From a virus, in the IMG/VR virus record IMGVR_UViG_3300042923_001783, positions 1 through 34,126 of that record: a stretch of 34,126 bases of DNA. One strand, given 5' to 3'. Below the pieces are notes generated by a model that worked only from the letters and a program-made list of their open reading frames with translations, searched no databases and was not told the origin of the DNA. Shown here piece after piece: positions 793 through 28,639 of this stretch. A program made the position numbers and the translations under genes. Numbering within the stretch: the first letter of the stretch is position 1; the number at the start of each line of letters is the position of its first letter.

Positions 793-819
793 TTGCTTTC
801 CGCGTGTTCATGGTAACAT
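793..819 (+). promoter_or_regulatory. Promoter-like element, copy A
   Basis: TTGCTT (793-798) and TAACAT (814-819) are separated by 15 bp, two fewer than in the other copies. The element shares the leading ATTAACTTGC with copies F and G, and the downstream CACTGACGAAA with copy G. It lies 35 bases before the degenerate amidoligase start. Because of the short spacer it may be weaker or need an activator. Confidence 0.5.
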
Positions 820-853
820 GTGCACTGACGAAACGCTTAAGGGAGGGCTTTAT

Positions 854-1732
854 ATGGACAAACACAGTTTCAAACTTCGCATGCAGGTTACTGGCCGGGA
901 ACGGAAAGAAGTGGCCGCTCTGATTGCCGCCCACTTTGGCACACAGGCGGTTTACCAGGGAACGCGGGGCTTTGGGTATCTCATCACCGAGCATAGTGGA
1001 CGCGAGTGGCTTGTTGACAAAGAGGGCGCGGTTGTTACCACAGGCACCAAGGAAGACAATGTGGCCGAACTGTTCGCGGTCTTAAAGACATTTGAAGAAA
1101 ACGAAGTAGAAGCGCGAGCCCAGGTGGCAGTGACAATCTCTACCGAGGAACACAACGGCGTGACGCTGCGGAACCTGGTAAATATTCTAGCGGGTAAGGA
1201 GCGGTTGATTACCAAAGCGATGGGCACGGGTCATCCCTTTATTGCCCCGGAAATGGTGGAGGCGATAAACGCTGTCCGCCTCAAAACCATTGAGGACTTT
1301 TTGGAAGCGGCGGGAAGTGAAGCTTCGCCGGGGCTGGCGATTGCTCAGGAAACCATTACCCTGACCTGGTTTGCAGCAACGTTAAACCCGGAGGCCATCG
1401 CTGCCTATATTCAATTTGCCTCTGCGGTAAATGCTATCGCTTTAACTCAGAAATACGCTACACCGCATGCGAAGGAGAGCGCTAATGAGAAATATACCTT
1501 CCGGGTTTGGCTGCTCCGGCTCGGCTTTATTGGCGAGGAGTACAGCGCCAGCAGGAAATTGTTTCTCGGGAGGTTAGAGGGCAACAGTTCTTTCCGTACA
1601 AAGGAGCAAATCTATGAGGCGGTAAAACGACGAAAGACACGTTTAGCTACGAGTAACGCTACGCCTGCGGCTGCCGTTCGAAATGCTCCTAGTGGGCATT
1701 GTAGGGAATTGGCAACAGCTTTAAAAGAGTAA
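854..1732 (+). CDS. Degenerate amidoligase-like protein (probable pseudoenzyme paralog)
   Basis: A 292-residue protein that is clearly a diverged paralog of the amidoligase encoded just downstream. Both share a TLRNLVN-x-x-A-x-KE segment in the middle and a C-terminal NEK(Y/F)TFR-x-WLLRLG-x-IG segment ending in LEGNS. The copy here lacks the family's key motifs. The first strand reads FKLRM where the partner has FGIEIE, the E-V-V-S-P strand is missing, CGIHIHVD is replaced by a stretch without histidines (around residues 89-99), and the EFR motif is absent. Catalysis is therefore unlikely. A role as a regulatory or heteromeric partner, or simple decay, is possible, but the frame is fully intact. 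The ATG at 854 is chosen because GGGAGGG precedes it; earlier in-frame starts would run into the promoter-like element and the upstream gene. Confidence 0.7.
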   Translation: MDKHSFKLRMQVTGRERKEVAALIAAHFGTQAVYQGTRGFGYLITEHSGREWLVDKEGAVVTTGTKEDNVAELFAVLKTFEENEVEARAQVAVTISTEEHNGVTLRNLVNILAGKERLITKAMGTGHPFIAPEMVEAINAVRLKTIEDFLEAAGSEASPGLAIAQETITLTWFAATLNPEAIAAYIQFASAVNAIALTQKYATPHAKESANEKYTFRVWLLRLGFIGEEYSASRKLFLGRLEGNSSFRTKEQIYEAVKRRKTRLATSNATPAAAVRNAPSGHCRELATALKE

Positions 1733-1806
1733 AAGTGTGCTAATTGACGTAAACGTAAGTAATAGTGAGATAATAAAAGAAAAACTGTGTAAATAAGAGA
1801 ATTTAG

Positions 1807-1854
1807 TTGATTTCGTGTGCTTTTGGAGGTAACATGACAGTGACCAAAAGCACA
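1807..1854 (+). promoter_or_regulatory. Promoter-like element, copy B, with flanking inverted repeat
   Basis: TTGATT (1807-1812), 17 bp, TAACAT (1830-1835). An exact 11-bp inverted repeat, TGTGCTTTTGG at 1816-1826 and CCAAAAGCACA at 1844-1854, brackets the -10 box. The left arm lies upstream of the likely transcription start, so the repeat is more likely an operator than an RNA hairpin. The amidoligase ribosome binding site AGGAGG follows directly. Confidence 0.7.
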
Positions 1855-1867
1855 GGAGGTTAGCAGC

Positions 1868-2764
1868 ATGAAAAACCAGTACTTCGGCATCGAAATCGAA
1901 CTCACCGGAATCACAAGATACCAAGCCGCAACAACCATCGCAGCCTATTTTGGTACAAGCCTCGGTCACCAAAGCGCCTCGTATGGGACCTACAAGGTAG
2001 CTGATCGCCAAGGTCGCACCTGGCAAGTGGTTAAAGATGGTAGCATTACGGCTCAGAAAAAAACAAACGGTAGGCGAGCAGCGGCTGGCGACGAATATAA
2101 AGTCGAGGTAGTCTCACCAAAAAGCCGATACGAAGACATCGAAACTGTCCAGGAACTGGTCAGAAGACTTCGCGAGGCAGGCGCGTTCACCAACAGTAGC
2201 TGCGGTATCCATATTCATGTCGATGCCGCCAACCATACCGCCAAAACGCTGCGCAACCTAGTCAATCTGATGGCTAGCAAAGAGGACATGCTCTATAAAG
2301 CCCTTGAAGTCGATGAGGCAAGGATGAGAAGGTTTTGCCAAAAGGTGAATGGCAGCTTGATAGAAGATATTAACCGCACTAAACCTGCGACCATGGAAGC
2401 ACTAAGAACACTTTGGTATAAACCCTATAGCGGTGAAACCAACTACCATTATCATCAAAGTCGATATCATGGCCTGAATTTCCACTCAGTCTTTACGAAA
2501 GGGACGGTGGAATTCAGGCTTTTTAATTCCACCACTCACGCCGGGAAAATCAAGACATACATCCAGCTTTGCCTGGCGATCAGCCACCAGGCGATTGCAC
2601 AAAGGGGCGCGTCAGCCAGAAAAACGGCCACCACGAACGAAAAATTCACCTTTCGGACCTGGCTCCTACGCCTTGGCCTGATCGGCGACGAGTTCAAAAC
2701 GGCCCGGCTACACCTTTTGGAAAAGCTGGAGGGCAACAGCGCCTGGAGATATGCGGCGTCATAA
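1868..2764 (+). CDS. Amidoligase (Amidoligase_2 / COOH-NH2 ligase family)
   Basis: A 298-residue protein with the hallmarks of the glutamine-synthetase-fold amidoligases: FGIEIE at residues 6-11, K-V-E-V-V-S-P near 78-84, SCGIHIHVD near 111-119 (metal-binding histidines 115 and 117) and VEFRLF near 214-219. These enzymes use ATP to join a carboxylate to an amine, forming peptide-like amide bonds. In prophages and mobile elements they are often coded beside gamma-glutamylcyclotransferase-like enzymes, as here. The substrate is unknown: a small metabolite, a cell-wall peptide or a protein side chain are all possible. An AGGAGG site precedes the ATG. The gene has its own promoter-like element (copy B) and follows a motif-less paralog. 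The family call is strong; the biological role is inference. Confidence 0.87.
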   Translation: MKNQYFGIEIELTGITRYQAATTIAAYFGTSLGHQSASYGTYKVADRQGRTWQVVKDGSITAQKKTNGRRAAAGDEYKVEVVSPKSRYEDIETVQELVRRLREAGAFTNSSCGIHIHVDAANHTAKTLRNLVNLMASKEDMLYKALEVDEARMRRFCQKVNGSLIEDINRTKPATMEALRTLWYKPYSGETNYHYHQSRYHGLNFHSVFTKGTVEFRLFNSTTHAGKIKTYIQLCLAISHQAIAQRGASARKTATTNEKFTFRTWLLRLGLIGDEFKTARLHLLEKLEGNSAWRYAAS

Positions 2765-2771
2765 GAACAAA

Positions 2772-2795
2772 GGCAGGGCGGCTTTGCCGCCCGCC
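2772..2795 (+). other. GC-rich intergenic hairpin
   Basis: GGGCGGC at 2776-2782 and GCCGCCC at 2786-2792 form a perfect 7-bp stem with a TTT loop, extendable by outer GG/CC pairs. No T-run follows, so it is not a standard intrinsic terminator. It could slow transcription or protect mRNA ends between the amidoligase and cyclotransferase genes. Confidence 0.5.
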
Positions 2796-2819
2796 TCAAT
2801 AAAGAGTGGAGGAATGATG

Positions 2820-3299
2820 ATGACTAAAATTTACCTGGCTTACGGCAGCAATTTGAATATTGAGCAGATGGCAAGGCGGTGCCCGACCGCGCTGGTATTG
2901 GGATCGACGAAACTCAGGGGATACAAAGCAACCTTTCGGGGCATGGACGGCGGCGCCGTGATGAATATTGAACCGGACGCTGCCGGTGTAGTACCGGTTC
3001 TGCTCTGGGAGATTGAGCCAGCCGATGAGATGGCGCTAGACCGCTATGAAGTCTTCCCTCGACTTTATCGAAAGAAAATCGTAACAGTAACATTTAAGGG
3101 TGAGCGGGTTACGGCGATGGCGTACATTATGAACGAGGGGCCACCGCTTGGTGCGCCAGGCAACGGATATTACTATATCATTCGGCAAGGTTACAAGGAG
3201 GCAGGGTTTGATATCGGCATTCTCCACCGGGCGATAAAGGAATCGGCTTTCCCGGAACAAGAGCTGCGATACAAGCCGAATTATAACTTTAGGTGGTGA
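2820..3299 (+). CDS. Gamma-glutamylcyclotransferase-like protein (AIG2/GGCT fold)
   Basis: A 159-residue protein starting TKIYLAYGSNL. YGSN (residues 8-11) is the substrate-binding loop of the GGCT/AIG2 family, and the segment LDRYEVFPRLYRK near 74-85 carries the likely catalytic glutamate (E77). Family members cyclise gamma-glutamyl groups, releasing 5-oxoproline and a free amine. Next to an amidoligase this enzyme probably trims, recycles or removes what the ligase attaches; that pairing is known from prophage amidoligase operons. Three ATGs stand in a row at 2814, 2817 and 2820. The third is 7 bases from GGAGG and is preferred. No separate promoter is visible, so it is probably co-transcribed with the amidoligase. 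Confidence 0.88.
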   Translation: MTKIYLAYGSNLNIEQMARRCPTALVLGSTKLRGYKATFRGMDGGAVMNIEPDAAGVVPVLLWEIEPADEMALDRYEVFPRLYRKKIVTVTFKGERVTAMAYIMNEGPPLGAPGNGYYYIIRQGYKEAGFDIGILHRAIKESAFPEQELRYKPNYNFRW

Positions 3300-3304
3300 T
3301 AACA

Positions 3305-3553
3305 ATGCGAGTAATGATGAATGACAGAGTATATAGCGGATCGCCGGAAGCGGTGGTCGATGAAATGTGGAACGAGTGCTTTCACCGGGACACATTACCT
3401 CACGTTGAGGAATATATCGCCTATGTGGCTGGCAACGTTTTCAAATTTGCCGGCTTCGGCATTAATATTAACGCCCGGACAATAGAAGAAAAAAGTCGGC
3501 GATTGCTGGAAGGATTAGTAGCTGCGGGTCTTGCGAGAAAAGTGGAGAATTAG
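3305..3553 (+). CDS. Hypothetical phage protein, 82 residues
   Basis: The ATG at 3305 lies behind AGGTGGTG and only a few bases after the cyclotransferase stop, so it is the last gene of the amidoligase unit. The protein is small, mixed in charge and mostly helical in look, with no signal peptide, membrane segment or cysteine motif. I do not recognise a family. Its tight linkage suggests a role in the same process, but nothing in the sequence shows which. Earlier in-frame codons overlap the previous gene and lack a ribosome binding site. Confidence 0.65.
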   Translation: MRVMMNDRVYSGSPEAVVDEMWNECFHRDTLPHVEEYIAYVAGNVFKFAGFGININARTIEEKSRRLLEGLVAAGLARKVEN

Positions 3554-3584
3554 CGAGGAAACGTGTGAAAAGTAAAGATATTCC

Positions 3585-3613
3585 TTGATTTCCTGTACCT
3601 TCAGAGGTAACAT
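3585..3613 (+). promoter_or_regulatory. Promoter-like element, copy C
   Basis: TTGATT (3585-3590), 17 bp ending in CAGAGG, TAACAT (3608-3613), followed by GAACACA as in copies D and E. It stands before two small genes that end in a strong terminator. Confidence 0.7.
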
Positions 3614-3646
3614 GAACACACCAAAGGCGGGAAGGAGACAAGGAAA

Positions 3647-3805
3647 ATGATACTAGGATACCCCCGGAAACTGGTTTCTAAAGAGCTTCAGAAATTGAAT
3701 ATATTTATACCGCCCAGGCAGGTAACAGAAAAAGACGTTCTTTTAATCCACAACATCCGCATGGAGCGGCTCCGGGATAATTTAGCAAGAAGCAGGAGCG
3801 TGTGA
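3647..3805 (+). CDS. Small hypothetical protein, 52 residues
   Basis: Starts MILGYPRKLVSK and ends LARSRSV. A GGAGACAAGG stretch precedes the ATG. It is the first gene behind promoter-like element C and stops one base before the next ATG, which supports translation. It is basic, with helical N- and C-terminal parts joined by a short IPPRQ turn. No family is recognised, and a DNA- or protein-binding accessory role is only a guess. Confidence 0.6.
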   Translation: MILGYPRKLVSKELQKLNIFIPPRQVTEKDVLLIHNIRMERLRDNLARSRSV

Positions 3806-3806
3806 A

Positions 3807-3995
3807 ATGAAATATCCAAAAGGCACCGTTTTTGAATCATACGATGAACCGTATACAGTAGTCGGCACAGTATATATCGTAAACGATAGTTACGTATTGG
3901 TGCCGCAAGATGAGGAAGACACCGACGTGATACTTTATACCGAGGCCGAGATCGAGGAAGGACTGGAAGAAGGCTGGCTGGTTATAAAAAAATAA
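3807..3995 (+). CDS. Small acidic protein, paralog of the 4766-4951 product
   Basis: 62 residues starting MKYPKGTVF. It matches the 4766-4951 product in order: M-K-Y-x-K-G-T, then Y-x-V-V-G, then D-T-D-x-x-x-Y-T-(E/D)-x-E-I-(K/E)-E. The fold looks like a short beta-barrel followed by one acidic helix. The function is unknown. Two related copies within 1 kb, each in its own promoter-terminator unit, point to duplication. It is translationally coupled to the upstream gene (one base between stop and start). Confidence 0.7.
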   Translation: MKYPKGTVFESYDEPYTVVGTVYIVNDSYVLVPQDEEDTDVILYTEAEIEEGLEEGWLVIKK

Positions 3996-4002
3996 GTGAA
4001 TA

Positions 4003-4036
4003 AAAAGGAAGCCGACAGCGGTTTCCTTTTCATTTT
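4003..4036 (+). terminator. Intrinsic terminator after the copy C unit
   Basis: AAAAGGAAGCC (4003-4013) pairs with GGTTTCCTTTT (4020-4030) around a 6-base loop, followed by a T-rich tail. The A-rich left arm means it could also work on the other strand. Confidence 0.85.
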
Positions 4037-4095
4037 TCCTTAAACACGCAATCGTTAGAAAAGGGAGGATAATCGGTGAAAACGGAAGAAATGAG

Positions 4096-4124
4096 TTGAT
4101 TACCTGTGCTTTTAGAGCTATCAT
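4096..4124 (+). promoter_or_regulatory. Promoter-like element, copy D
   Basis: TTGATT (4096-4101), 17 bp ending in TAGAGC, TATCAT (4119-4124), then GAACACAACGAAAG. The 35 bases up to the -35 box closely match those of copy E, so the two units share a longer ancestral segment. Confidence 0.7.
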
Positions 4125-4155
4125 GAACACAACGAAAGAACAGGAGGTCAAAAGG

Positions 4156-4332
4156 ATGAATAACACCCAATGGCTGGAAGAAGGGGTACGGCGAGTCAGA
4201 AAGGATGGCAGTTGGCAGGTCGACAAGAAAGAAGATGCAATAGCCTTGCAAGAGTACGCATTCACAAAATATGGATATGACTTTGTTGCCCGGCGCAGAG
4301 CTTGGATGATAGAAGTAGTTGATAATGACTAG
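4156..4332 (+). CDS. Small hypothetical protein, 58 residues
   Basis: The ATG at 4156 has AGGAGG nearby. An earlier in-frame ATG lies inside the -10 region of copy D and has no ribosome binding site, so it is rejected as a start. The protein begins MNNTQWLEEG and has the look of a short helix, beta hairpin (DGSWQV), helix fold. There is no known motif or membrane segment. It is a single-gene unit with its own promoter and terminator, the layout typical of phage morons (cargo genes). Function unknown. Confidence 0.65.
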   Translation: MNNTQWLEEGVRRVRKDGSWQVDKKEDAIALQEYAFTKYGYDFVARRRAWMIEVVDND

Positions 4333-4361
4333 AAAAGGGAAGCCATTGGCTTCTCTTTTTG
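4333..4361 (+). terminator. Bidirectional terminator between convergent genes
   Basis: GGAAGCC (4338-4344) pairs with GGCTTCT (4348-4354) around ATT. T-runs follow on both strands (TTTTT on plus, CCCTTTT on minus). It separates the 4156 gene from the reverse-strand gene that ends at 4385. Confidence 0.8.
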
Positions 4362-4384
4362 TTGAAGGGCGCTGATATCAAATG

Positions 4385-4630
4385 CTATAACGTAATATCC
4401 ACCATATTATCAGGTGCGGCTTGCACTTTCAGAACGAGCTTACGCCACTCCTCAACAGTAAGGGAGGCTTGGCCGGACTTTACAATATATGCCGTAATAC
4501 GGAAATTCTCAGCAGTGCCAAAACTAGCAACAGAAAGTATTCCATCATAGGCAGCGATAGAGATGCGATCAAAACCAATGATGGGAAGGGCGTGGCTCAG
4601 GAAAGTGTCTTTATAGACGGTTGCTTGCAT
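4385..4630 (-). CDS. Reverse-strand hypothetical protein, 81 residues
   Basis: The only gene on the minus strand. The ATG at 4630 (reading MQATVYKDTF) has a perfect AAGGAGG 9 bases upstream on that strand. A TTG nine bases earlier sits directly against the ribosome binding site and is unlikely. The product is a compact protein with several hydrophobic beta-like stretches (PIIGF, RISIAAY, FRITAYIV) and a C-terminal helix. No family is recognised. It has its own promoter-like sequence and ends at a two-way terminator, so it is an independent unit inserted against the direction of all other phage genes. Confidence 0.7.
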   Translation of the reverse strand: MQATVYKDTFLSHALPIIGFDRISIAAYDGILSVASFGTAENFRITAYIVKSGQASLTVEEWRKLVLKVQAAPDNMVDITL

Positions 4631-4657
4631 GAACGGCAACCTCCTTAAATAAAATGT

Positions 4658-4686
4658 GGATTACCTAGAAAAAAGAAGATAATCAA
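4658..4686 (-). promoter_or_regulatory. Minus-strand promoter-like element
   Basis: Read on the minus strand: TTGATT (4686-4681), 17 bp ending in AGG, TAATCC (4663-4658), then AGGAGG and the 4630 start. Its -35 box faces that of copy E. TAATCAAC (4680-4687) and GTTGATTA (4705-4712) form an exact 8-bp inverted repeat 17 bases apart. Confidence 0.55.
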
Positions 4687-4705
4687 CGAAAACAGAAGAA
4701 ATGAG

Positions 4706-4752
4706 TTGATTAAGTGTGCTTTCAGAGGTAACATGAACACAAGGAAAGCACA
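4706..4752 (+). promoter_or_regulatory. Promoter-like element, copy E, with inverted repeat
   Basis: TTGATT (4706-4711), 17 bp ending in CAGAGG, TAACAT (4729-4734). TGTGCTTTC (4715-4723) and GAAAGCACA (4744-4752) are perfect inverted arms flanking the -10 box, at nearly the same spacing as in copy B. Confidence 0.72.
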
Positions 4753-4765
4753 GGAGGCTAAAATG

Positions 4766-4951
4766 ATGAAATACGGTAAAGGAACCCTTCTTCAACTTAA
4801 AGGCAGCAAACAGAACTACAAAGTAGTTGGCAAATGGCATGACGCTTGCGTACTAGCTTCCGAAGACCCTCGGGATACCGATATTGTGATGTATACAGAC
4901 AGCGAGATCAAGGAGGAAATCGAAGCAGGCCGGATAGCAATTATATTATAG
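4766..4951 (+). CDS. Small acidic protein, paralog of the 3807-3995 product
   Basis: 61 residues starting MKYGKGTLLQ. It shares the MKY-x-KGT start, the Y-K-V-V-G strand and the DTDIVMYT-x-SEI core with the earlier copy. ATGs occur at 4763 and 4766. The second is 8 bases from CAGGAGG and aligns with the paralog's start. It is the only gene between promoter-like element E and a terminator. Function unknown; the fold looks like a small beta-barrel with an acidic C-terminal helix. Confidence 0.7.
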   Translation: MKYGKGTLLQLKGSKQNYKVVGKWHDACVLASEDPRDTDIVMYTDSEIKEEIEAGRIAIIL

Positions 4952-4965
4952 AAGGAAAGTACAGG

Positions 4966-4992
4966 AAGAAGCCATAGCGGGCTTCTTTTTTT
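4966..4992 (+). terminator. Intrinsic terminator just upstream of the terminase operon
   Basis: AAGAAGCC (4966-4973) pairs with GGCTTCTT (4980-4987) around a 6-base loop, followed by more Ts. Only 28 bases separate it from the small terminase start, too few for a full promoter, so late transcription must pass through it or be antiterminated. Confidence 0.8.
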
Positions 4993-5020
4993 ATGGGCGG
5001 AAAAGGGGGGAGCGACCAAA

Positions 5021-5566
5021 ATGGCAGACGAGTGGGGCCGCGTGATTGGCGGCAAAAAATGTATTTCCACCTCAGACCTATGCGAGTTACTGGGCATAGA
5101 CAAATCGACATTGACCTACTGGGTCCGGGACGGATGCCCTAAAGAAGAACACGGCTGGTGGTGTCTCAAAGATATTCTTCGCTGGCGAGGGCTGGTGGGC
5201 GGCGGCGTCCGCACCGAAGGACAGGCGGACGCCGTTGCGCTGAAGGAGCAAAAGTTAAAAGCGGACACGGACCTCAAAAAACTGGCCGCAGCGTCTGCTG
5301 CGATCAAGCTCGGAGAACTCAAGGGCAAATATGTCAGTGCAGAGGAAACCACCGACACCTTGCAGCGATTTTTCATTGTCCTTAAACGTTCGCTCCTGAC
5401 ACTGGGCCGGCGGGTATCGGTGGAAGTGGCCTCGCATGTGGATGCGGTAACCGCGAGGAGGATAGAAAGAATGGTCAATGAGGTAATAACCGATGGGCTC
5501 GAACAAATCAGCATTGACGGAGTCTACACTCCGACGCGCCGGTCAAAGAAAAAGAACTCTTCTTGA
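5021..5566 (+). CDS. Terminase small subunit (Nu1-like)
   Basis: 181 residues with an N-terminal winged-helix DNA-binding region (about 17-60: STSDLCELLGIDKSTLTYWVRDG, as in Nu1/MerR-like heads). A charged coiled-coil stretch (around 68-105) and a C-terminal helical part for assembly with the large subunit follow. The role is to recognise the packaging site and load the large terminase. The ATG follows AAAAGGGGGGAGCG. The 3' end overlaps the large-subunit gene by 74 bases, so the two are translationally coupled. Position and domain order match lambda Nu1; length is also as expected. Confidence 0.85.
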   Translation: MADEWGRVIGGKKCISTSDLCELLGIDKSTLTYWVRDGCPKEEHGWWCLKDILRWRGLVGGGVRTEGQADAVALKEQKLKADTDLKKLAAASAAIKLGELKGKYVSAEETTDTLQRFFIVLKRSLLTLGRRVSVEVASHVDAVTARRIERMVNEVITDGLEQISIDGVYTPTRRSKKKNSS

Positions 5567-7361
5567 GTGGCCGGCCTGGCTGAAAAATGCCATCGCCATA
5601 CTGAAACCGCCGGACCTCCTAACCGTAACCGAGTGGTCGGACCGCTACCGGATACTGGATGAAAAAACAGCCGCTGTGCCCGGCAGATGGCAAACCAGCC
5701 GCACACCGTATCTGCAGGAAATCATGGATGCCTTCACCCATCCAGATATCGAGGAGATTATCTTTTGCAAGGCATCCCAGATCGGCGGCACCGAGGCGCT
5801 CCTAAACATTCTGGCCTATACCGTCGCGCAGGACCCCAGCCCGTCCCTTTTGGTTTATCCCACGCTGGAGCTGGCCGAGTTCGCCAGTTCCAACCGCATC
5901 CAGCCTATGGTCACGCTGATACCGGAAACCGCCGTACGATATAACGGCAAAGACAGCAAAACACTGGAGCTGCAGTTTGACGGCATGTACCTGGCTCTGT
6001 CCGGGGCCAACTCGCCGGCGTCGCTGTCATCGCGCCCCATTCGCTTCCTTCTATTAGATGAGGTGGACAAATATCCGGCCAACGCCGGTAAGGAAGCCGA
6101 CCCAATCAGCCTGGCGCGGGAGCGCACCAAGACCTTCCACAACAAAAAAATTGTCTTGATATCCACCCCGACCCTACAGACGGGTGCTATCTGGCAAGCC
6201 TTCGAGAGCGCCGACGAACGGCGCTATTTTTATGTGCCTTGCCCGCACTGTGGCAAACATCAGATATTGAAGATGAGCAACGTCCGCTGGCCCAAGGAAA
6301 TGCGGGACCCGGCCCAGGTCAGGGAGGCGGCGTGGTATGTTTGCGAGCATTGCCAGGAAATCATCCGGGACCATCACAAGCAGGATATGCTGCGCGGCGG
6401 CCGCTGGATATCCGACAACACCACGGGGCGTGTTTCCCGCCGGGTGGCTTTCCACCTTTCCAGCATCTATTCGCCCTGGCTCACCTTCGGCGATATCGCC
6501 GCCGAGTTCCTAAAATCAAAGGCATTTCCTTTTCTTCTCCAAAACTTCGTCAACTCGTGGCTGGCCGAACCCTGGAAAACCGAAGCCAAACGCCACAACT
6601 CTGACCTCATTCTGGCCAGACGCGCTGCCTATCCAAAAGGCAAAGTTCATCAGGACGCCCAATTGCTTGTGGCTGGCGTCGACGTGCAGCTCAACCACTT
6701 TTGGTGGGGCGTGAGAGCGTGGGGACCTGACCTGACCTCATGGCTGGTGGACTACGGGCGCACAGAAACCTGGACGGACCTTGAAAATATCCTGCGGCGT
6801 CCCTATCCGACAAACGAAACCGGCGAAGTCGCCTATATTGCCAAAGCTTGTATCGACTCGGGATATAACACTGACGAGGTGTATAAATTCTGTGCCTACA
6901 ACCAGGATATCTGCGTGCCCACCAAGGGTTCCTCCCGGCCGCTCCGGTCGCGCTATGTACAGACCAAGATTGAAAAGGATATAGCCTTGGGCCTGATCCT
7001 GTACATCTTCGACCCCAACCAGTTTAAGGATTTTATCACCGGTCGGCTGGCTCATGAAATCAATATGCCCGGCGCCTGGATGGTGCCCGAGGATATCGAC
7101 CGGCTGTACGCCGACCAAATCGTGTCCGAACAGCGGATCGAGAAAAAAAGCAAAGCGGGTGTTATCACTTATGAATGGGCGAAGGTCAGCACCCATGCCC
7201 AGAACCATCTTCTCGACGTGGAAGTAAACTGTGCCCTGGCCGCCGAGATTTGCGGCGCCCGGTATTTGCAAAAGCCGGTGATCATCCGGCCCTCGCCGAC
7301 ACAGCCTGCGACAAACGGCAACAAGTGGCTGGGGAATACAAGCAACTGGATGAAACGGTAA
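5493..7361 (+). CDS. Terminase large subunit (lambda gpA family)
   Basis: 622 residues. It packages and cuts concatemeric DNA at the portal. The ATPase motor is visible as the A-like motif CKASQIGGTE (about 92-101) and the Walker B motif LLLDEVDK (about 186-193). A CPHC...CEHC pair (about 250-290) looks like a zinc ribbon. The nuclease domain starts around VAGVDVQ (aspartate near 396). The first ATG at 5493 has GAGGT about 9 bases upstream and lies inside the small-subunit gene; a TTG at 5514 is an alternative start. The GpA type usually goes with cohesive-end packaging, consistent with the gpW-like and lambda-like portal genes that follow. Confidence 0.94.
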   Translation: MGSNKSALTESTLRRAGQRKRTLLEWPAWLKNAIAILKPPDLLTVTEWSDRYRILDEKTAAVPGRWQTSRTPYLQEIMDAFTHPDIEEIIFCKASQIGGTEALLNILAYTVAQDPSPSLLVYPTLELAEFASSNRIQPMVTLIPETAVRYNGKDSKTLELQFDGMYLALSGANSPASLSSRPIRFLLLDEVDKYPANAGKEADPISLARERTKTFHNKKIVLISTPTLQTGAIWQAFESADERRYFYVPCPHCGKHQILKMSNVRWPKEMRDPAQVREAAWYVCEHCQEIIRDHHKQDMLRGGRWISDNTTGRVSRRVAFHLSSIYSPWLTFGDIAAEFLKSKAFPFLLQNFVNSWLAEPWKTEAKRHNSDLILARRAAYPKGKVHQDAQLLVAGVDVQLNHFWWGVRAWGPDLTSWLVDYGRTETWTDLENILRRPYPTNETGEVAYIAKACIDSGYNTDEVYKFCAYNQDICVPTKGSSRPLRSRYVQTKIEKDIALGLILYIFDPNQFKDFITGRLAHEINMPGAWMVPEDIDRLYADQIVSEQRIEKKSKAGVITYEWAKVSTHAQNHLLDVEVNCALAAEICGARYLQKPVIIRPSPTQPATNGNKWLGNTSNWMKR

Positions 7362-7364
7362 GTG

Positions 7365-7395: not shown

Positions 7396-7410
7396 AGGAG
7401 GTGAGCGAGT

Positions 7411-18205: not shown

Positions 18206-18209
18206 TAAT

Positions 18210-23159: not shown

Positions 23160-23175
23160 CAAGCAGGAGGTCCTT

Positions 23176-23622
23176 ATGAAAATTAACGAGGTAAAAGTAA
23201 AGGGCAGCTTGACGCTGACCCTTCACAAAGCGGACGGTGGGGTGGAGGTGCGTCGCAAAGATAATATTATCGTGAGTACCGGCTTTGACGCCATTTGCGA
23301 CAGCTTGGGCAAAACCAGCGGCCGTCCGGCTGCCTTTGGCCATATCGCCCTTGGAACCGGCACGGATGCTCCGGCGCTTAGTCAGACGGCACTGATTAGC
23401 GAAATTGCCCGACAGGCTGCTACCTATGCGCATGTGGCCGGGACGCAGGTTATGACGTTCAGTTCCACCTTTCTACCTGGCGCCGCCACCGGAGCAATCA
23501 CGGAAGCGGGCGTCTTTAATGCGGCCAGTGCTGGAACCATGCTGGATCGGGTACTCTTCAATGTCATTAATAAGGGCGAGAATGATACCCTGACGGCACA
23601 ATTCCAGTTTACGTTGAGCTAA
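23176..23622 (+). CDS. Phage tail-associated protein, 148 residues
   Basis: Strong GCAGGAGG site. Beta-rich small protein with KGSLTLTLHKADGGVEVRRKDNIIV followed by FGHIALGTGTDAPALSQTALISEI and ITEAGVFNA. This layout is common in conserved proteins coded between J and the fibre genes in siphoviruses and Mu-like phages. It probably forms part of the baseplate or fibre base. No enzymatic motif. The family is recognised only by general pattern. Confidence 0.72.
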   Translation: MKINEVKVKGSLTLTLHKADGGVEVRRKDNIIVSTGFDAICDSLGKTSGRPAAFGHIALGTGTDAPALSQTALISEIARQAATYAHVAGTQVMTFSSTFLPGAATGAITEAGVFNAASAGTMLDRVLFNVINKGENDTLTAQFQFTLS

Positions 23623-23647
23623 TTCTTGAGACGGGGAGGAAGAGACA

Positions 23648-24829
23648 ATGGCATACGTTACAACGATTGACATATCCTCCTTGCCGGGCAGTGCCTACAC
23701 CTGGGAAACTGCCCTTTTTGCCTGGAACGACCCCGACGGCAGAAAAACATGGGACGACGTGAGGCCCGTTGTGTACACTTTGCGTGTGGGCGAAGGCTGG
23801 AGCGCGGAGGAGGCCTGGTGGCAGCAGTACCAGCTAACGTCGCGGGAAGGCTGGCATATGGCAGAGGGGTTGGTGCAAGTATTTGCCTGCCTGATACAGG
23901 AAGCCTGGCGGATAAGCGAAGGTTGGACCGATGTCTGGCTGGCGCTGATGAAGATCGTGGAAGGCTGGACAGTGGCGGAAGTAACGAGAAAATCCGTACA
24001 TATCTCCCAGGCGGAAGGCTGGGGGATAATGGTCAGTCTGCCCGTATGGAATATGCTCCAAGCCACAAGCGAGGCTTGGAATACGGCAGAAGCCGACCAG
24101 GAGACTGTCGATTTTCATTATAAGGCGGTAGAGAGCTTCTTGCTTGATGAAAGCCTGGCCAAAAGTGCAACGAAGTCTCTTAGTGAAACATTCACACCTT
24201 CCGATGGCTGGGCGGTGGAAACCATAAAAAACCTATGGGAAGTCTGGCAAACACAAGACTCCGCAGCAACCCGAAACTCCTTCGAACGGGTGCTGGCGGA
24301 GTCTTTTTCTACGGCAGATTCCATCAGTAAAGACCAGATTTCAACCTTCTTTGAAGCAATGGAAACTGTCGAAGCTTACCTGCGCAGCGCCAATGCCGTC
24401 GTGAGTGATCTTGCTTTTGGCTCAGGCGATTTGTCACTGGACGAGTTTTTAAAGCTGAATGCGCCGGTAGGGTACTCGCCGTTCACAGCATTTGTCCCTG
24501 GTGAACTGGAGTACCGGAAAGCGTTGATTGCTCTTATCCTCAAGGGGACGTTGACCACCGGCCGGCCGCGGATTACCGACTGGCAGCTTACGGTGGACGT
24601 ACCGGATCAGACCGATGGCGGAACCTCTTTTATCCCGGCGGCAAATACCTTCATCCCGTTTCAGCGCCGGTTTTATGCGCCGCCGCAGGTTCTGGTCCAG
24701 CTCCGGGGCGGCAGCGGCGGGACGCCAGATATCACGCACATTACAGAGGCCGGCTTTTATGTGCAGATCAGTGATGCGACCGGCAGTATTCTTGCCGGCG
24801 ACATCATTTGGTCTGCCGACGGCTACTAA
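23648..24829 (+). CDS. Putative tail fibre with tryptophan-rich degenerate repeats
   Basis: 393 residues. About residues 45-240 hold a degenerate repeat of roughly 14-22 residues whose core reads E-(G/A)-W-(S/T/R)-x-(A/S)-E (EGWSAEEAW, EGWHMAEG, EAWRISEGW, EGWTVAEV, AEGWGIMV, SEAWNTAEA). Later copies replace W by F (ESFLLDES, ETFTPSDGW, ESFSTADS). The C-terminal 120 residues (from about PFTAFVPGELEYRKALIALILKG) form a beta domain like those found near fibre tips. The repeat probably forms a regular shaft. It follows the J gene and precedes the glycine-rich fibre. GGGGAGGAAGAGACA precedes the ATG. Confidence 0.7.
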   Translation: MAYVTTIDISSLPGSAYTWETALFAWNDPDGRKTWDDVRPVVYTLRVGEGWSAEEAWWQQYQLTSREGWHMAEGLVQVFACLIQEAWRISEGWTDVWLALMKIVEGWTVAEVTRKSVHISQAEGWGIMVSLPVWNMLQATSEAWNTAEADQETVDFHYKAVESFLLDESLAKSATKSLSETFTPSDGWAVETIKNLWEVWQTQDSAATRNSFERVLAESFSTADSISKDQISTFFEAMETVEAYLRSANAVVSDLAFGSGDLSLDEFLKLNAPVGYSPFTAFVPGELEYRKALIALILKGTLTTGRPRITDWQLTVDVPDQTDGGTSFIPAANTFIPFQRRFYAPPQVLVQLRGGSGGTPDITHITEAGFYVQISDATGSILAGDIIWSADGY

Positions 24830-24840
24830 GGAGGGCTAGA

Positions 24841-25902
24841 ATGCAACAATTTGTTCCCATTGCCAGTACGCAAACACTAACCGACAGCCGGGCGGAGATC
24901 CTTAACAATGACCGCACCATCATGTCCTGTAATAGCGGCACTTCCTTCCCGACGACCAATCTCGAAGTTGGGATGCTTTGTTTTCGTACCGATTTAAACC
25001 AGATTTTTGAACTGAAGAACTTAACTCCAATCTGGGTGTTAATCGCCGATCTAAATAAAACCTACACTCATAAAGAATATGTTGATGCCCAAGTAGCGAC
25101 GAAAGCTCCGATAGATGACATCGTAACTGTTCCTACAGCGAATAAGCTTCTCAAGTTAGATGCTAACGGGCAATTGCCCGCCAGTATCACAGGAAACGCC
25201 GTTACCGCCACAACTGCCACAACCGCTTTGGCCGTAGCTTGGAGCGGTGTTACTGGGAAACCTGCAACTTTTATCCCTCCCATTGCCACGAAAACGACAA
25301 TGGGAGGGATTATTGCTGGTTCGGGTCTTTCTATTAATGGCAGCGGCATTCTTAGTGCCGACATTCCCGCTATTCCCTCTCATGGCTACAGGATGTTTTT
25401 ATATTCCGGAACGTTTACCATTCCGGAAGGTGTTGAGGAAGTGTGGCTTAGCATGTGTGGTGGTGGAGGAGGTGGAAAACAAGGTCATTATGTCAATGAA
25501 GGTGACAGTTATAGTGGTGGTGGCGGTGGTGGAGCACATGCGATTTTGGCACAGAATACGGCTGTTACCCCCGGGGAAGTTATTACAATTACTGTCGGTG
25601 CTGGGGGGAATGCCGCGAGTGCTGGAGGCACATCCTCTTTCGGGCCGTATGTTTCTTGTGCTGGCGGCGGCGGTGCGACAGGTACTACCGATAGCGGGAA
25701 TGCCGGCGGTCCAGGTGGCAGCCCTGGGACCATCGGCGAACTTTTCGGTTCAGTTGGTACTGGCGGAGGCTGCATATTTGGCCAAGGATCAGGTAAGCCG
25801 ACAGTTAATGCGGGCGGCTTTGGTGCTGGTGGCGCTGGTGGAGGTTCCGGCGGTGCTGCTGGCAGCAAGGGTTCACCGGGTTTTGTCCTAATCCAATGGT
25901 AA
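24841..25902 (+). CDS. Tail fibre/adhesin with glycine-rich tip
   Basis: 353 residues. The first part (to about 180) contains strands and short coils, including PTANKLLKLDANGQLPASITGNAVTATTA, typical of phage fibre shafts. The last 150 residues are glycine-rich, with repeated GGGGGG and GAGG runs, two of them with cysteines (WLSMCGGGGGG; VSCAGGGG), and end in GFVLIQW. Such glycine-rich tips form polyglycine sandwich adhesins in several phages and usually bind the receptor. The ATG at 24841 has AAGGAGGG upstream; a longer in-frame reading overlaps the previous gene. Confidence 0.85.
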   Translation: MQQFVPIASTQTLTDSRAEILNNDRTIMSCNSGTSFPTTNLEVGMLCFRTDLNQIFELKNLTPIWVLIADLNKTYTHKEYVDAQVATKAPIDDIVTVPTANKLLKLDANGQLPASITGNAVTATTATTALAVAWSGVTGKPATFIPPIATKTTMGGIIAGSGLSINGSGILSADIPAIPSHGYRMFLYSGTFTIPEGVEEVWLSMCGGGGGGKQGHYVNEGDSYSGGGGGGAHAILAQNTAVTPGEVITITVGAGGNAASAGGTSSFGPYVSCAGGGGATGTTDSGNAGGPGGSPGTIGELFGSVGTGGGCIFGQGSGKPTVNAGGFGAGGAGGGSGGAAGSKGSPGFVLIQW

Positions 25903-25924
25903 AAATATAAGAAAGGAGCAGTCG

Positions 25925-26302
25925 ATGATGCGATATGCGCAAATTCTTTATAATAAAGCTCACTGGATCTTTGAGAGTGATGAGACTTTAGAAGAAATGT
26001 ATTCTCATCGGTTTCATCACTCCTTACTGTTTATTGATGTAACGAATAGGCCGGAAGTGATGGAGGGGTGGGAGTATGATGGTATAAATTTTACTGACCC
26101 CTTTGCCCCTAAGCCATTAACAAAAGAAGAGAAACTAAATTTACTTAACGCTGAATTCGAGCCTTTAATCAATGCAAATGATTTAGCGTACATTATAGCC
26201 CTTCGTAATATGGATGCTGCTCTTATGGATGAACTAAACAATGAAAGAAACACGCTGAAGGCAGCTTATAACACAAAAATGGAGGAAATTCTAAATGGCT
26301 AA
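25925..26302 (+). CDS. Probable tail fibre assembly-type accessory protein
   Basis: 125 residues directly after the fibre gene with AAAGGAGCAGTCG upstream. The N-terminal half has strands (AQILYNKAHWIF; SLLFIDVTNRPEV); the C-terminal half is helical and charged (LTKEEKLNLLNAEFEPLI...ALMDELNNERNTLKAAYNTKMEEIL). Position and this two-part layout are like fibre assembly chaperones. No specific family motif is visible, so the role is inferred from context. Confidence 0.65.
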   Translation: MMRYAQILYNKAHWIFESDETLEEMYSHRFHHSLLFIDVTNRPEVMEGWEYDGINFTDPFAPKPLTKEEKLNLLNAEFEPLINANDLAYIIALRNMDAALMDELNNERNTLKAAYNTKMEEILNG

Positions 26303-26384
26303 AGCAACTCGTTGCCCTATTTGTGGACATAAGTTAGACGACCAAGGTAAATGCACAAATATAGATTGCAAATATCAAAAGTAA
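26295..26384 (+). CDS. Zinc-ribbon miniprotein, 29 residues
   Basis: The ATG lies 8 bases inside the previous gene, with GGAGG just upstream, so it is translationally coupled. The peptide reads MAKATRCPICGHKLDDQGKC and ends TNIDCKYQK. C-x2-C followed by C-x4-C makes a minimal zinc ribbon. Similar tiny zinc proteins occur at the ends of phage tail fibre operons. Its function is unknown; a structural role in fibre assembly or a regulatory role are possible. Confidence 0.7.
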   Translation: MAKATRCPICGHKLDDQGKCTNIDCKYQK

Positions 26385-26433
26385 AATAGGGGCAAAAAGC
26401 CAGTATCGAATTCTTTTAGAAAGCGGTGAGGGA

Positions 26434-26625
26434 ATGGGACAGCCCGAATGGGTTTGCATGCAGCATAGTGGCCAGTGCAAAGCGATTGTAACGCTGGAGA
26501 AAAACGATGAAGTGATATTCAAGCGTCTTCACGCTCTGGAAATGGCCGTCTGGAAAGCGGCCGGGGCGACTGGCGTTGTTATGGGAATCGTGATGGTTAT
26601 TATACAGAAGGTGCTATTAAAATGA
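26434..26625 (+). CDS. Small membrane protein, XhlA/hemolysin-like, lysis-associated
   Basis: 63 residues. A charged helix (KNDEVIFKRLHALEMAVWKAA) is followed by one C-terminal membrane segment (GATGVVMGIVMVIIQKVLL) and a lysine end, the layout of XhlA-like proteins that sit beside holins in Firmicutes phages. It probably anchors or assists the lysis complex at the inner membrane. GGTGAGGGA precedes the ATG. It overlaps the holin gene by 4 bases (ATGA). Confidence 0.75.
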   Translation: MGQPEWVCMQHSGQCKAIVTLEKNDEVIFKRLHALEMAVWKAAGATGVVMGIVMVIIQKVLLK

Positions 26626-26900
26626 TTAAACAAATGATAAAACAATGGTTTTGCTTTCTATACAGCAATTGGGTGGGCGTTATCCTGACGATGACGCTCA
26701 TCCTGTTTTTTGTCTACCTATACGCGTTCTTCCGCAACGGAGAGGGTGGGGCGCATTACGACCTTGCTAGTTGCTGGGCTGGGGTGGGAGCCATTGCTAC
26801 GGCTGCCGCCGTCGGCTGGGGCAAGTGGGTCGTCGACAGCAAGTGGAATACTCTTCCGGGCATGATGCCTGATCACGAGAAAGGGGAAATAAATGAATGA
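26622..26900 (+). CDS. Holin-like membrane protein
   Basis: 92 residues with a first membrane segment at about 18-36 (VGVILTMTLILFFVYLYAF) and a second, weaker one at about 47-66 (LASCWAGVGAIATAAAVGWG). The C-terminus is charged. Two segments and a place between the XhlA-like gene and the endolysin support a holin that forms the pore and times lysis. It is coupled on both sides by 4-base overlaps. Confidence 0.78.
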   Translation: MIKQMIKQWFCFLYSNWVGVILTMTLILFFVYLYAFFRNGEGGAHYDLASCWAGVGAIATAAAVGWGKWVVDSKWNTLPGMMPDHEKGEINE

Positions 26901-27340
26901 CTACAGATGAATTTATTGAGTGGCTGGCGCCGGCGGCACAGGCGCAGACAAGGTGCTATAACCTGCCCGCGAGCGTACTGATTGCTCAGGGGGCCATTGA
27001 AAGCGGCTGGGGGCGGTCGGTCATCGGCCAATACAATTTATTTGGCCGCAAGTGGAACGGCACCGGGCCGTATATTGAACTGCCTACCCAGGAATACGAA
27101 GGCGGCCGCTATGTGACCATCCGGGCCAAGTTTCAGGACTATCCGAGCTTACTACATGCCTGCGATGACTGGTGCATTTTGATGACGCAAGAGCCATGCT
27201 ACTTTCCCGCCGTTGCCGCCTTGCCGGACCTTACGCAGTTTGTGCGGCTGATGGGCGCGAAGTATGCCACCGACCCGGACTATGCGAATAAAGTGTTAGC
27301 GACAATCCGTGCAAACAACTTAACCCGTTTTGACGCCTAA
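26897..27340 (+). CDS. Endolysin, glucosaminidase family (GH73-like)
   Basis: 147 residues. The conserved catalytic motif IAQGAIESGWGRS holds the likely catalytic Glu35, followed by YNLFGRK and the second motif YVTIRAKFQDYPSLLHACDDW, as in the glucosaminidase/FlgJ family. It cleaves the glycan chains of peptidoglycan at lysis. There is no signal peptide and no cell-wall binding domain, so release depends on the holin. The lack of a binding domain fits a host with thin peptidoglycan. Confidence 0.88.
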   Translation: MTTDEFIEWLAPAAQAQTRCYNLPASVLIAQGAIESGWGRSVIGQYNLFGRKWNGTGPYIELPTQEYEGGRYVTIRAKFQDYPSLLHACDDWCILMTQEPCYFPAVAALPDLTQFVRLMGAKYATDPDYANKVLATIRANNLTRFDA

Positions 27341-27358
27341 GAGGGCGTTTATTTTATT
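27333..27358 (+). terminator. Short hairpin with T-rich tail after the endolysin
   Basis: ACGCC (27333-27337) pairs with GGCGT (27344-27348) around the endolysin stop codon, followed by TTATTTTATTT. It is probably a partial terminator, like the hairpins after terminase and the decoration gene. Confidence 0.5.
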
Positions 27359-27374
27359 TGAGGAGGCTACCTAT

Positions 27375-28019
27375 ATGAAACTTGATAAAAACAACAGGGT
27401 GCTTTTGGGTCTTGCTTTAGCCGTCATCATTTTTCTGGTTGGGTTGCTCTTTTGGAACAGGGCGCACCCGTCGGTGCCAATTACACTTGAATCGCAGGAG
27501 CAGGCGGCGACGCCGGCTGGAGTGGACAGAGCGGCAAACGCCGCTCAAGTTCCCCTTTCGCCATCGCAAGCCGAAGCCATAGCAAGTGCGATTAAGAAAA
27601 GTGAAGCGAAAGTGCCGGATGCCGTGGTACAGACCACCGGGGCGAAACTGGAGGAGACGATCCAGGCCGAACTGAAAAAGTCCGGCGGCCAGTTTGCCAT
27701 TGTTACCGACCCTAAGCATCCGGTCAGCGTTCCGGTTTTGCCTCTGGCCAATGCCGCCCCAGCAAAGGCGGAACCCATTGCTCCCGCTTCAACGGTTATC
27801 TTGAACCAATATAACATTAAAGCGTACCCAGACCGGCTATTCCAGATTGGTGGCAGTTATCAGGAAGTGCTCGCCGCCTATAGCTGGAAGGTCGATGTTC
27901 CCAAGATACCGCTTATCACTCCGCGCGGCAATGCCGGGTACTTGGGAGTTTACGGGCACGCCAACCTGGACCGCCCGGACCAGTCGAGAATTGGAATCCT
28001 ACTGACGATACCGCATTAA
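27375..28019 (+). CDS. Membrane-anchored protein after the endolysin, candidate spanin
   Basis: 214 residues starting MKLDKNNRVLLGLALAVIIF. One N-terminal membrane segment (about 9-27) follows a short positive tail, so the rest should face the periplasm. An alanine-rich helical region (about 55-105) leads into a beta-rich C-terminal part. The place right after the endolysin is where phages of outer-membrane hosts code for spanins, which fuse inner and outer membrane. No lipobox or second o-spanin frame was seen, so this is a candidate only. AGGAGGCTACCTAT precedes the chosen ATG. It could also be another envelope-modifying protein. Confidence 0.6.
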   Translation: MKLDKNNRVLLGLALAVIIFLVGLLFWNRAHPSVPITLESQEQAATPAGVDRAANAAQVPLSPSQAEAIASAIKKSEAKVPDAVVQTTGAKLEETIQAELKKSGGQFAIVTDPKHPVSVPVLPLANAAPAKAEPIAPASTVILNQYNIKAYPDRLFQIGGSYQEVLAAYSWKVDVPKIPLITPRGNAGYLGVYGHANLDRPDQSRIGILLTIPH

Positions 28020-28047
28020 GAAAGGAAAGGCCGTCGCACTAGAAATT

Positions 28048-28069
28048 TCTCTACTATATATAGTAGAGA
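28048..28069. repeat. Perfect 22-bp palindrome, possible operator
   Basis: TCTCTACTATA and TATAGTAGAGA are exact inverse complements with no gap. A second half-like copy (ATATATAGTGGGAG) lies about 28 bases downstream. The palindrome sits in the gap between the lysis genes and the recombination module and contains a TATATA stretch that could be a -10 region. Confidence 0.65.
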
Positions 28070-28117
28070 TTTAAGGTGGAACGCAATATATAGTGGGAGC
28101 TTCCTTGCTGCTGCGGC

Positions 28118-28139
28118 CCCTTTCGTAAGAAAGGGAGGG
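28118..28139 (+). promoter_or_regulatory. Hairpin overlapping the SHOCT-like gene ribosome binding site
   Basis: CCCTTTC (28118-28124) pairs with GAAAGGG (28129-28135) around a GTAA loop. The ribosome binding site AAAGGGAGGG is partly inside the stem, with AGGG left outside. Translation of the next gene may be limited by this fold. Confidence 0.55.
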
Positions 28140-28142
28140 ATA

Positions 28143-28283
28143 ATGATGGGAATGCCTGAAAAAACAAACATGGAGTATCTAATCAGCAAGTACCTGTTAA
28201 AGCAACTGTTGAATAAAGGGTTGATCACCGAGATAGAGTTTCAGCGTATCGATGCTGAGAACAGGAAAAGCTTTGCCCAGTAA
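28143..28283 (+). CDS. SHOCT-like small protein of the recombination module
   Basis: 46 residues. The core reads EYLISKYLLKQLLNKGLITEIEF, a short helical pattern like SHOCT domains (L-x-x-L-x-x-x-G-x-I-T-x-x-E-F). Such small proteins are regular neighbours of large serine recombinase genes in Firmicutes prophages. Its function is unknown; oligomerisation or help in recombination are reasonable guesses. ATGs at 28143, 28146 and 28152 are possible; the first two best fit GGGAGGG. Confidence 0.7.
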   Translation: MMGMPEKTNMEYLISKYLLKQLLNKGLITEIEFQRIDAENRKSFAQ

Positions 28284-28293
28284 CCGGATTAAC

Positions 28294-28322
28294 TTGCAAT
28301 GTAGTGTAAACAGAGTTAACAT
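28294..28322 (+). promoter_or_regulatory. Promoter-like element, copy F
   Basis: TTGCAA (28294-28299), 17 bp ending in CAGAGT, TAACAT (28317-28322), then GTCACACAACGAGGGAGG. It precedes the SymE-like gene and begins with ATTAACTTGC as in copies A and G. Confidence 0.68.
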
Positions 28323-28351
28323 GTCACACAACGAGGGAGGGGGCTGGGCGC

Positions 28352-28528
28352 GTGGGCAAACGTACCTTAAAAATTTATTCATCGGTGGCGTATCCCAAGC
28401 AACCGAATGTGCCCTGCATTATGCTGCAAGGGCAGTGGTTACTTAGGCTGGGGTTTACAACCGGGGGCCATGTTGAAGTGGAAGAAGGGGAAAGGGAACT
28501 GGTCATTCGCCTGGTTCAAAAAGGATAA
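28352..28528 (+). CDS. SymE-like toxin / AbrB-fold small protein
   Basis: 58 residues, GTG start about 10 bases after GGGAGGGG. The core PNVPCIMLQGQWLLRLGFTTGGHVEVEEGERELVIRL matches the SymE pattern: P-x-I-x-L-x-G-x-W-L-x-x-x-G-F-x-x-G-x-x-V-x-V then L-V-I. SymE proteins are small AbrB-fold toxins, in enteric bacteria controlled by an antisense RNA. Here the gene forms its own promoter-terminator unit beside recombinases, a frequent setting in Firmicutes prophages. Whether it is toxic here, or works as a DNA-binding regulator, is not known. Confidence 0.77.
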   Translation: MGKRTLKIYSSVAYPKQPNVPCIMLQGQWLLRLGFTTGGHVEVEEGERELVIRLVQKG

Positions 28529-28542
28529 GGGACAATAGTACG

Positions 28543-28576
28543 GCGGCTTGGTGATTGCTCCAAGCCCTGTTTTTTT
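28543..28576 (+). terminator. Intrinsic terminator after the SymE-like gene
   Basis: GGCTTGG (28545-28551) pairs with CCAAGCC (28560-28566), followed by CTGTTTTTTT. It isolates the SymE unit from the recombinase promoter downstream. Confidence 0.85.
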
Positions 28577-28610
28577 ATCAAAATCCATATGTTTCCGCAT
28601 CAAGATTAAC

Positions 28611-28639
28611 TTGCTTTGAGGCAATAACAGAGCTAACAT
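28611..28639 (+). promoter_or_regulatory. Promoter-like element, copy G
   Basis: TTGCTT (28611-28616), 17 bp ending in CAGAGC, TAACAT (28634-28639), then CACACTGACGAAAGGAGG. It stands before the decayed fragment and the two recombinase genes and probably drives them. Confidence 0.68.

What the first reader, a model, noticed from the sequence alone, without database searches (positions are those of the whole stretch)
793..28639. One promoter-like element repeated at seven sites links accessory, toxin and recombinase genes
Copies lie at 793, 1807, 3585, 4096, 4706, 28294 and 28611, plus a minus-strand relative at 4686-4658. Six have TTGATT, TTGCTT or TTGCAA exactly 17 bp before TA(A/T)CAT. Most end the spacer in CAGAG or TAGAG plus one base, and are followed by an (A)CAC...CGAAAG leader and AGGAGG. 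Conservation of the spacer and leader goes beyond what sigma-A needs. Copies B and E add inverted arms (TGTGCTTT/AAAGCACA) around the -10 box. This suggests a dedicated phage or host regulator controlling a scattered regulon, in which both the recombinase operon and the cargo genes respond together.
Basis: partly seen in the sequence, partly recalled or inferred. Interest (0 to 1): 0.72.

Follow-up and report, generated by a model that had tools for sequence, protein, structure and literature searches.

The report
Self-locking promoters of prophage cargo genes
Accessory genes of this prophage carry copies of a promoter-like element found in prophages of many bacteria, and some copies also encode an RNA arm that may keep the gene silent when the virus's own transcripts run through it.

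Summary
The repeated element is real. Five of seven window copies match a motif model trained only on relatives, far above chance; 793 and 28294 are weaker relatives; the minus-strand copy is not supported. 271 of 274 copies have a gene starting just downstream, most often amidoligase-like, sometimes a serine recombinase. In 234 of 263 non-recombinase copies packaging genes lie nearby on the same strand; none was seen near 30 recombinase copies.

New result: the -35/-10 spacer pairs with its own leader and ribosome-binding region better than with swapped leaders (z -8.6 in 176 copies, -5.7 in 117 hold-out copies, -0.1 to -1.0 in genes without the element). Strong helices: 75 of 263 non-recombinase copies (about 23 of all 293 expected), 0 of 30 recombinase copies. 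The arm lies upstream of the expected transcript start, so I infer a read-through lock like that of T4 genes e and I-TevI.

A dedicated regulator remains possible. Here only copies 1807 and 4706, perhaps 4096, have significant arms. A sigma-70 consensus scan is not enriched. No transcript ends or translation were measured.

The parts
793..846 (+). element copy A (15-nt spacer), upstream of amidoligase-like gene 854-1732; no significant arm
1807..1859 (+). element copy B: TTGATT / TAACAT, arms 1816-1826 and 1844-1854 (11 bp), Shine-Dalgarno 1854-1859; in the predicted fold the -35 region pairs over the Shine-Dalgarno site
   Evidence: fold z -3.95
3585..3638 (+). element copy C, upstream of gene 3647-3805; no significant arm here, perfect arms in L005, L006 and L284
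4096..4147 (+). element copy D, upstream of gene 4156-4332; imperfect arms
4706..4757 (+). element copy E, upstream of small gene 4766-4951 (no Pfam match); arms 4715-4723 and 4744-4752 (9 bp)
28294..28343 (+). element copy F, upstream of symE-like toxin gene 28352-28528; no significant arm
28611..28657 (+). element copy G, upstream of a 25-codon ORF that starts at GTG 28669; no significant arm
854..1732 (+). amidoligase-like protein (phrog_2443; Pfam Amidoligase_2 just below cut-off)
1868..2764 (+). amidoligase (PF12224)
2817..3299 (+). gamma-glutamyl cyclotransferase-like gene, without a copy of its own
4003..4030 (+). terminator-like hairpin after gene 3807-3995
28545..28566 (+). terminator-like hairpin after the symE-like gene
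1..750 (+). DNA methylase (PF01555), upstream neighbour of the cassette array
5021..7361 (+). small and large terminase genes, downstream neighbours of the array

Best explanation
Each copy is the front end of a prophage cargo gene. Copies A to E form an array between the methyltransferase and terminase genes, read in the same direction as the packaging genes; some cassettes end in a terminator-like hairpin. The front end is a promoter (TTG-type -35, conserved AGAG, -10). In a minority of cargo copies, perhaps a fifth beyond chance, the DNA between -35 and -10 also encodes an RNA arm complementary to the gene's own leader and Shine-Dalgarno region. RNA running in from upstream has both arms, folds, and is poorly translated. 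RNA started at the local promoter begins inside the loop, lacks the left arm, and is translated. The cargo would then be made on its own promoter's schedule, for example in the lysogen, and not when the packaging genes are read. Shown by computation: the promoter-like family, its position beside packaging genes, and copy-specific complementarity. Inferred: that it is a promoter, where transcripts start, the translation block, and the timing.
For: Promoter: A/T-rich tracts recur upstream of the -35 box at positions not used in the search. Position: of 223 loci (not de-duplicated), methyltransferase found in 130 (350 of 350 pairs same strand and upstream) and large terminase in 123 (358 pairs same strand, 2 opposite; 98% of the 358 downstream); in all 51 loci with several copies they face one way. 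Arms: 176 non-redundant copies, own duplex -7.51 against -6.30 kcal/mol for GC-matched swaps, z -8.6; reversed arm z -0.5. 93 IMG/VR copies z -6.0, 83 GTDB copies z -6.5; 91 genes without the element z -0.1 to -1.0. Hold-out, 117 copies: z -5.7, 26 strong helices against 8.0 (sd 2.4) swapped. First set: strong helices 49 of 176 against 14.8 (sd 3.1) swapped, 29 overlapping the Shine-Dalgarno hexamer against 7.3. Recombinase copies 0 of 30, others 75 of 263, Fisher p 1e-4. Window: Shine-Dalgarno unpaired probability, read-through to local start, 0.17 to 0.54 at 1807 and 0.20 to 0.68 at 4096; control genes 0.47 to 0.55 on shortening. Precedent in T4: passages of PMC2988022 and PMC3014915.
Against: A sigma-70 consensus scan finds no excess (6 sites against 5.6 in shuffles for 600-5100, 1 against 1.0 for 28000-29100) and lists only one of the seven copies, 4096. 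Other windows upstream also show weak own-versus-swapped signal, down to z -3.9, so part of the effect is background. No G-U over A-C preference in imperfect helices (own 17 and 24; swapped 8.3 and 11.1), so the arms do not show that sense RNA is what is selected. Over all 176 copies the own arm hides the Shine-Dalgarno site only slightly better than a shuffled arm (0.346 against 0.385, p 0.026) and anti-Shine-Dalgarno words are not enriched. The right arm follows the Shine-Dalgarno site by interquartile range (8.0 against 14.5 nt from the -35 box) but not by standard deviation (8.7 against 8.4). Four of seven window copies have no significant arm, and at 4706 predicted accessibility does not change (0.76 and 0.76). 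Of five window copies folded, only 1807 stands out (z -3.95; others -1.73 to -0.05). Some arm changes in close relatives are not compensated (L284 copy B, L285 copies C and E; read by eye). Copies with and without seen packaging genes do not differ significantly (70 of 234 against 5 of 29, p 0.19).
Confidence: 0.45

Rival explanations
1. A dedicated phage or host regulator, or an alternative sigma factor, recognises TTGCTAT and AGAG and drives a scattered regulon; the arms are part of its operator or incidental.
For: GAG at +19 to +21 is 0.92-1.00 conserved in 74 variants sampled through their genes; the consensus sigma-70 scan misses six of seven window copies; cargo and serine recombinases share the element.
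Against: No regulator was identified. Genomes named Clostridia, Negativicutes, Bacilli and Gardnerella carry it (titles), so one phage-specific factor would have to follow it across them. Arm sequence and loop length vary.
Confidence: 0.27
2. The arms are a DNA inverted repeat around the -10 box, bound by a dimeric repressor.
For: Arms flank the -10; no G-U preference.
Against: Loops range from 18 to 52 nt; arm sequences differ between copies of one locus, for example L193 and L120; recombinase copies lack strong arms.
Confidence: 0.13
3. Ordinary promoters of accessory genes; the complementarity is a by-product of shared composition or ancestry, with no lock.
For: Most copies lack a strong helix; weak background signal in other windows; small accessibility effect over the whole set.
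Against: The signal is strongest over the spacer, near zero for reversed arms (z -0.5 and -1.5) and for genes without the element, and repeats in a hold-out set.
Confidence: 0.15

Closest known systems
Phage T4 genes e, soc, 49 and I-TevI (also segB and Aeh1 mobE): promoter placed so that only read-through RNA forms a hairpin that hides the ribosome-binding site
   Same: The local promoter's transcripts would lack the 5' arm; the 3' arm covers or abuts the Shine-Dalgarno site in many copies (T4 side: passages of PMC2988022 and PMC3014915).
   Different: The T4 cases are individual genes with T4 promoters; here one conserved promoter-like family carries gene-specific arms in many prophages, and no function has been tested.
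T4-type PeSL mobile regulatory cassettes
   Same: Repeated promoter units in front of phage accessory genes.
   Different: Their cited title calls them promoter-terminator motifs (reference list and one passage of PMC4503421; the PeSL paper itself is not held). By eye the arms here are not followed by a T run.
Cluster K mycobacteriophage SAS/ESAS
   Same: Repeats at translation starts of a subset of genes, about half with inverted repeats (PMC3203893, passages).
   Different: SAS is a 13-bp repeat absent from this window even with 2 mismatches; ESAS arms share a consensus and mostly have 4-13 bp spacers. Here arms differ between copies, loops are 18-52 nt, and the conserved part looks like a promoter.
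IS10/IS50 fold-back inhibition of read-through transposase RNA
   Same: Same logic of refusing outside transcription (recalled).
   Different: Recalled only; a search listed no paper that holds the term.

Membership tests
T4-type read-through lock | 5' arm upstream of the local transcript start, 3' arm downstream | tested here: inconclusive
   Left arm lies in the -35/-10 spacer, but the start is inferred, not mapped
T4-type read-through lock | Helix covers the Shine-Dalgarno site | tested here: inconclusive
   29 of 49 strong helices in the first set and 12 of 26 in the hold-out; small mean effect over all 176 copies
T4-type read-through lock | Read-through RNA translated less than local RNA | not testable with these tools
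   needs a reporter
Moron gene cassette | Own promoter and own terminator inside a phage operon | tested here: inconclusive
   Promoter-like element and packaging context found; forward terminator-like hairpins listed after 3995, 28528 and before the recombinase, not after every cassette
PeSL | Stem-loop acts as terminator | tested here: not met
   Read by eye in the listed helices: right arms run to or over the Shine-Dalgarno site, no T run
SAS/ESAS | 13-bp GGGATAGGAGCCC at gene starts | tested here: not met
   0 matches in the window with up to 2 mismatches
DNA operator of a dimeric repressor | Fixed half-site spacing and sequence | tested here: not met
   Loops 18-52 nt and varying arms
Rfam RNA family | Match at gathering score | tested here: not met
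   0 matches in the window; relatives not searched

The most novel reading that the evidence does not exclude
A mobile promoter family, spread through prophages of many Bacillota and reaching Gardnerella, whose spacer doubles as a gene-specific antisense arm. It makes a cargo gene deaf to the viral operon in which it sits: a general way to carry lysogen genes inside late operons.
Probability: 0.37. Interest if true: 0.75.

Novelty: new variant of a known kind. Interest (0 to 1): 0.6.

Why it matters
If true, it explains how temperate phages can keep accessory genes between the methyltransferase and terminase genes without making them during packaging, and it gives a sequence signature for finding such genes. 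It would extend a mechanism known from a few T4-type genes to a promoter family in prophages of many Bacillota. Ten searches of an open-access library (only 22 and 53 used the sequence itself) listed no paper that describes this element. I saw listings and passages only, and most subscription papers are not held.

Tried and rejected
Single-stranded-DNA promoter (Frpo-like, recalled): set aside because in the predicted RNA folds the -10 lies mostly in the loop; no DNA fold was run. Integron-like cassette sites (recalled): set aside because the conserved part is asymmetric and promoter-like. DNA homologs in phage records: one distant hit to 4% of the query. A mis-spaced first pattern gave nothing. 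A G-U test for RNA selection gave no support. Anti-Shine-Dalgarno word enrichment was not found.

Limits: collection scans stop near 120 rows, so counts are lower bounds and the sample is not random. Sets were chosen by promoter pattern, not by arms. First set: 274 copies, 271 with an ORF, 239 with distinct proteins, 176 after dropping copies at least 75% identical. Hold-out: 243 copies, 237 with an ORF, 117 after the same filter and after dropping any like the first set. 'Cargo' means every non-recombinase gene. In one search, 209 of 408 gene starts lacked the exact pattern; 95 of these carry a variant by motif score and 114 do not, some of which show window-type or other variants by eye. In one search, 3 of 30 control genes were skipped for wrong coordinates. 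For copy G the start codon was taken as 28670 or 28671; it is 28669, so the Pfam result for that ORF is void.
Full report
What is in the window. The seven sites were read directly. Six have TTG and TA(A/T)CAT exactly 17 nt apart, and no other place on either strand does. A motif model trained on 11 copies from relatives scores five window copies from 12.5 to 81.1 bits, against at most -0.2 in ten random copies. Copies 793 and 28294 fall below it and are kept as relatives on shared sequence; the minus-strand site scores -20.9 and is dropped. Copies A to E stand before an amidoligase-like gene, an amidoligase, and three small genes without Pfam assignment above cut-off; copy F stands before a symE-like toxin gene; copy G stands before a short ORF, 402 nt from two tandem large serine recombinases.

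A larger family. Searching with the amidoligase showed the same layout with changed letters in some other phages, and a different leader in others. Titles name Clostridia, Negativicutes, Bacilli and Gardnerella, and a few MAGs labelled Bacteroidales or Acholeplasma. In 12 genomes taken from that list, five have 2 to 4 copies within about 5 kb and seven have one; the reversed pattern has none. The window-type form is in 2 of 380 genomes of one class, two copies each, with the reversed control in 1 genome. Loci from both genomes hold the window's cargo genes and small terminase; one copy (L281) stands alone without intact cargo. Of 274 copies, 271 have a gene with a Shine-Dalgarno-like site just downstream. 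239 distinct genes fall in 35 clusters, led by 120 amidoligase-like proteins and including 18 serine recombinases; of the 35 representatives few match named families.

It looks like a promoter. Upstream A/T-rich tracts recur about 5, 16 and 28 nt before the -35 box, positions not used for searching. When copies are sampled through their genes, 199 of 408 gene starts have the exact pattern and 95 of the other 209 carry a variant by motif score; in 74 distinct variants GAG upstream of the -10 is as conserved as the -10 itself. That exceeds ordinary sigma-A needs and keeps a dedicated factor open. A plain sigma-70 consensus scan finds no excess and lists only copy 4096.

Where it sits. In 223 loci the methyltransferase, where found (130), is upstream on the same strand in all 350 pairs; the large terminase, where found (123), is downstream in 98% of 358 same-strand pairs, with 2 pairs opposite. 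Packaging genes lie near 234 of 263 non-recombinase copies and 0 of 30 recombinase copies. In six genome loci read by eye the array stands beside phage-like genes. RNA of the packaging genes would therefore often run through the cargo.

The arms. The 11-nt spacer pairs with its own leader better than with GC-matched leaders of other copies: z -8.6, reversed control -0.5. The signal is strongest over the spacer (windows +4 to +12, z -7.1 to -9.2); other upstream windows reach z -3.9, and a window that overlaps the leader -6.1. It holds in the IMG/VR and GTDB halves, in amidoligase-like and other genes, and not in 91 genes without the element. In a hold-out set from three further scans it holds again, z -5.7, reversed -1.5, with 26 strong helices against 8.0 swapped. 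In the first set 29 of 49 strong helices overlap the Shine-Dalgarno hexamer, against 7.3 in swaps; loops vary from 18 to 52 nt. The right arm is closer to the Shine-Dalgarno site than to a fixed place by interquartile range (8.0 against 14.5 nt) but not by standard deviation (8.7 against 8.4). Recombinase copies have no strong helix, 0 of 30 against 75 of 263. Gene class and context go together, so these two causes cannot be separated.

In the window. Copies 1807 and 4706 have significant arms, 4096 a borderline one, the other four none. At 1807 the predicted fold lets the -35 region pair over the Shine-Dalgarno site (z -3.95); 4706, 3585, 4096 and 793 give z -1.73, -1.54, -0.57 and -0.05. Predicted Shine-Dalgarno accessibility rises on the local start at 1807 and 4096, also at 793 (0.01 to 0.69) and 3585 (0.02 to 0.56), less at 28294 and 28611, and not at 4706. 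Ordinary genes of the window go from 0.47 to 0.55 with a shortened leader.

Results against. No G-U preference; small mean effect on accessibility over the whole set and no anti-Shine-Dalgarno enrichment; uncompensated arm changes in close relatives; no start mapped. I put the lock at 0.45 and the existence of a shared prophage cargo element much higher.

Literature. T4 genes e and I-TevI are the closest precedent (passages of PMC2988022 and PMC3014915). A prophage study of Clostridium clostridioforme lists amidoligase, cyclotransferase and SymE genes together in one prophage (13 alpha); 12 of 17 passages seen do not mention the element (PMC11318856).

Noticed in passing
window 32299-34126: Two genes matching Lamassu-type defence models (LmuA, LmuC; Pfam CTD7 and MC3) lie just after the two serine recombinases.
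   Followed up: partly
window 29013-32261: Two large serine recombinases in tandem, each with resolvase, recombinase and zinc-ribbon domains.
   Followed up: partly
window 28669-28956: The ORF after copy G stops after 25 codons, and the same frame stays open beyond that stop to about 28956.
   Followed up: partly
window 28048-28069: A 22-base perfect palindrome upstream of the symE-like cassette, flagged as a hairpin.
   Followed up: no
window 4385-4630, minus strand: A small minus-strand gene inside the cassette array, 80% and 74% identical in L285 and L007, no Pfam match.
   Followed up: partly
L009, L011-L014, L017-L019, L021, L022, L025, L029 upstream of amidoligase: A different shared leader around ACGGTATTGTT before amidoligase genes of another phage group; possibly a diverged form of the element.
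   Followed up: no
L187, L223 (Gardnerella): Loci titled Gardnerella carry a similar gene array; terminase matches anchored the set used.
   Followed up: partly
L281: A lone window-type element without an intact cargo gene, beside a pair that looks by eye like a toxin-antitoxin module; possibly a relic.
   Followed up: no
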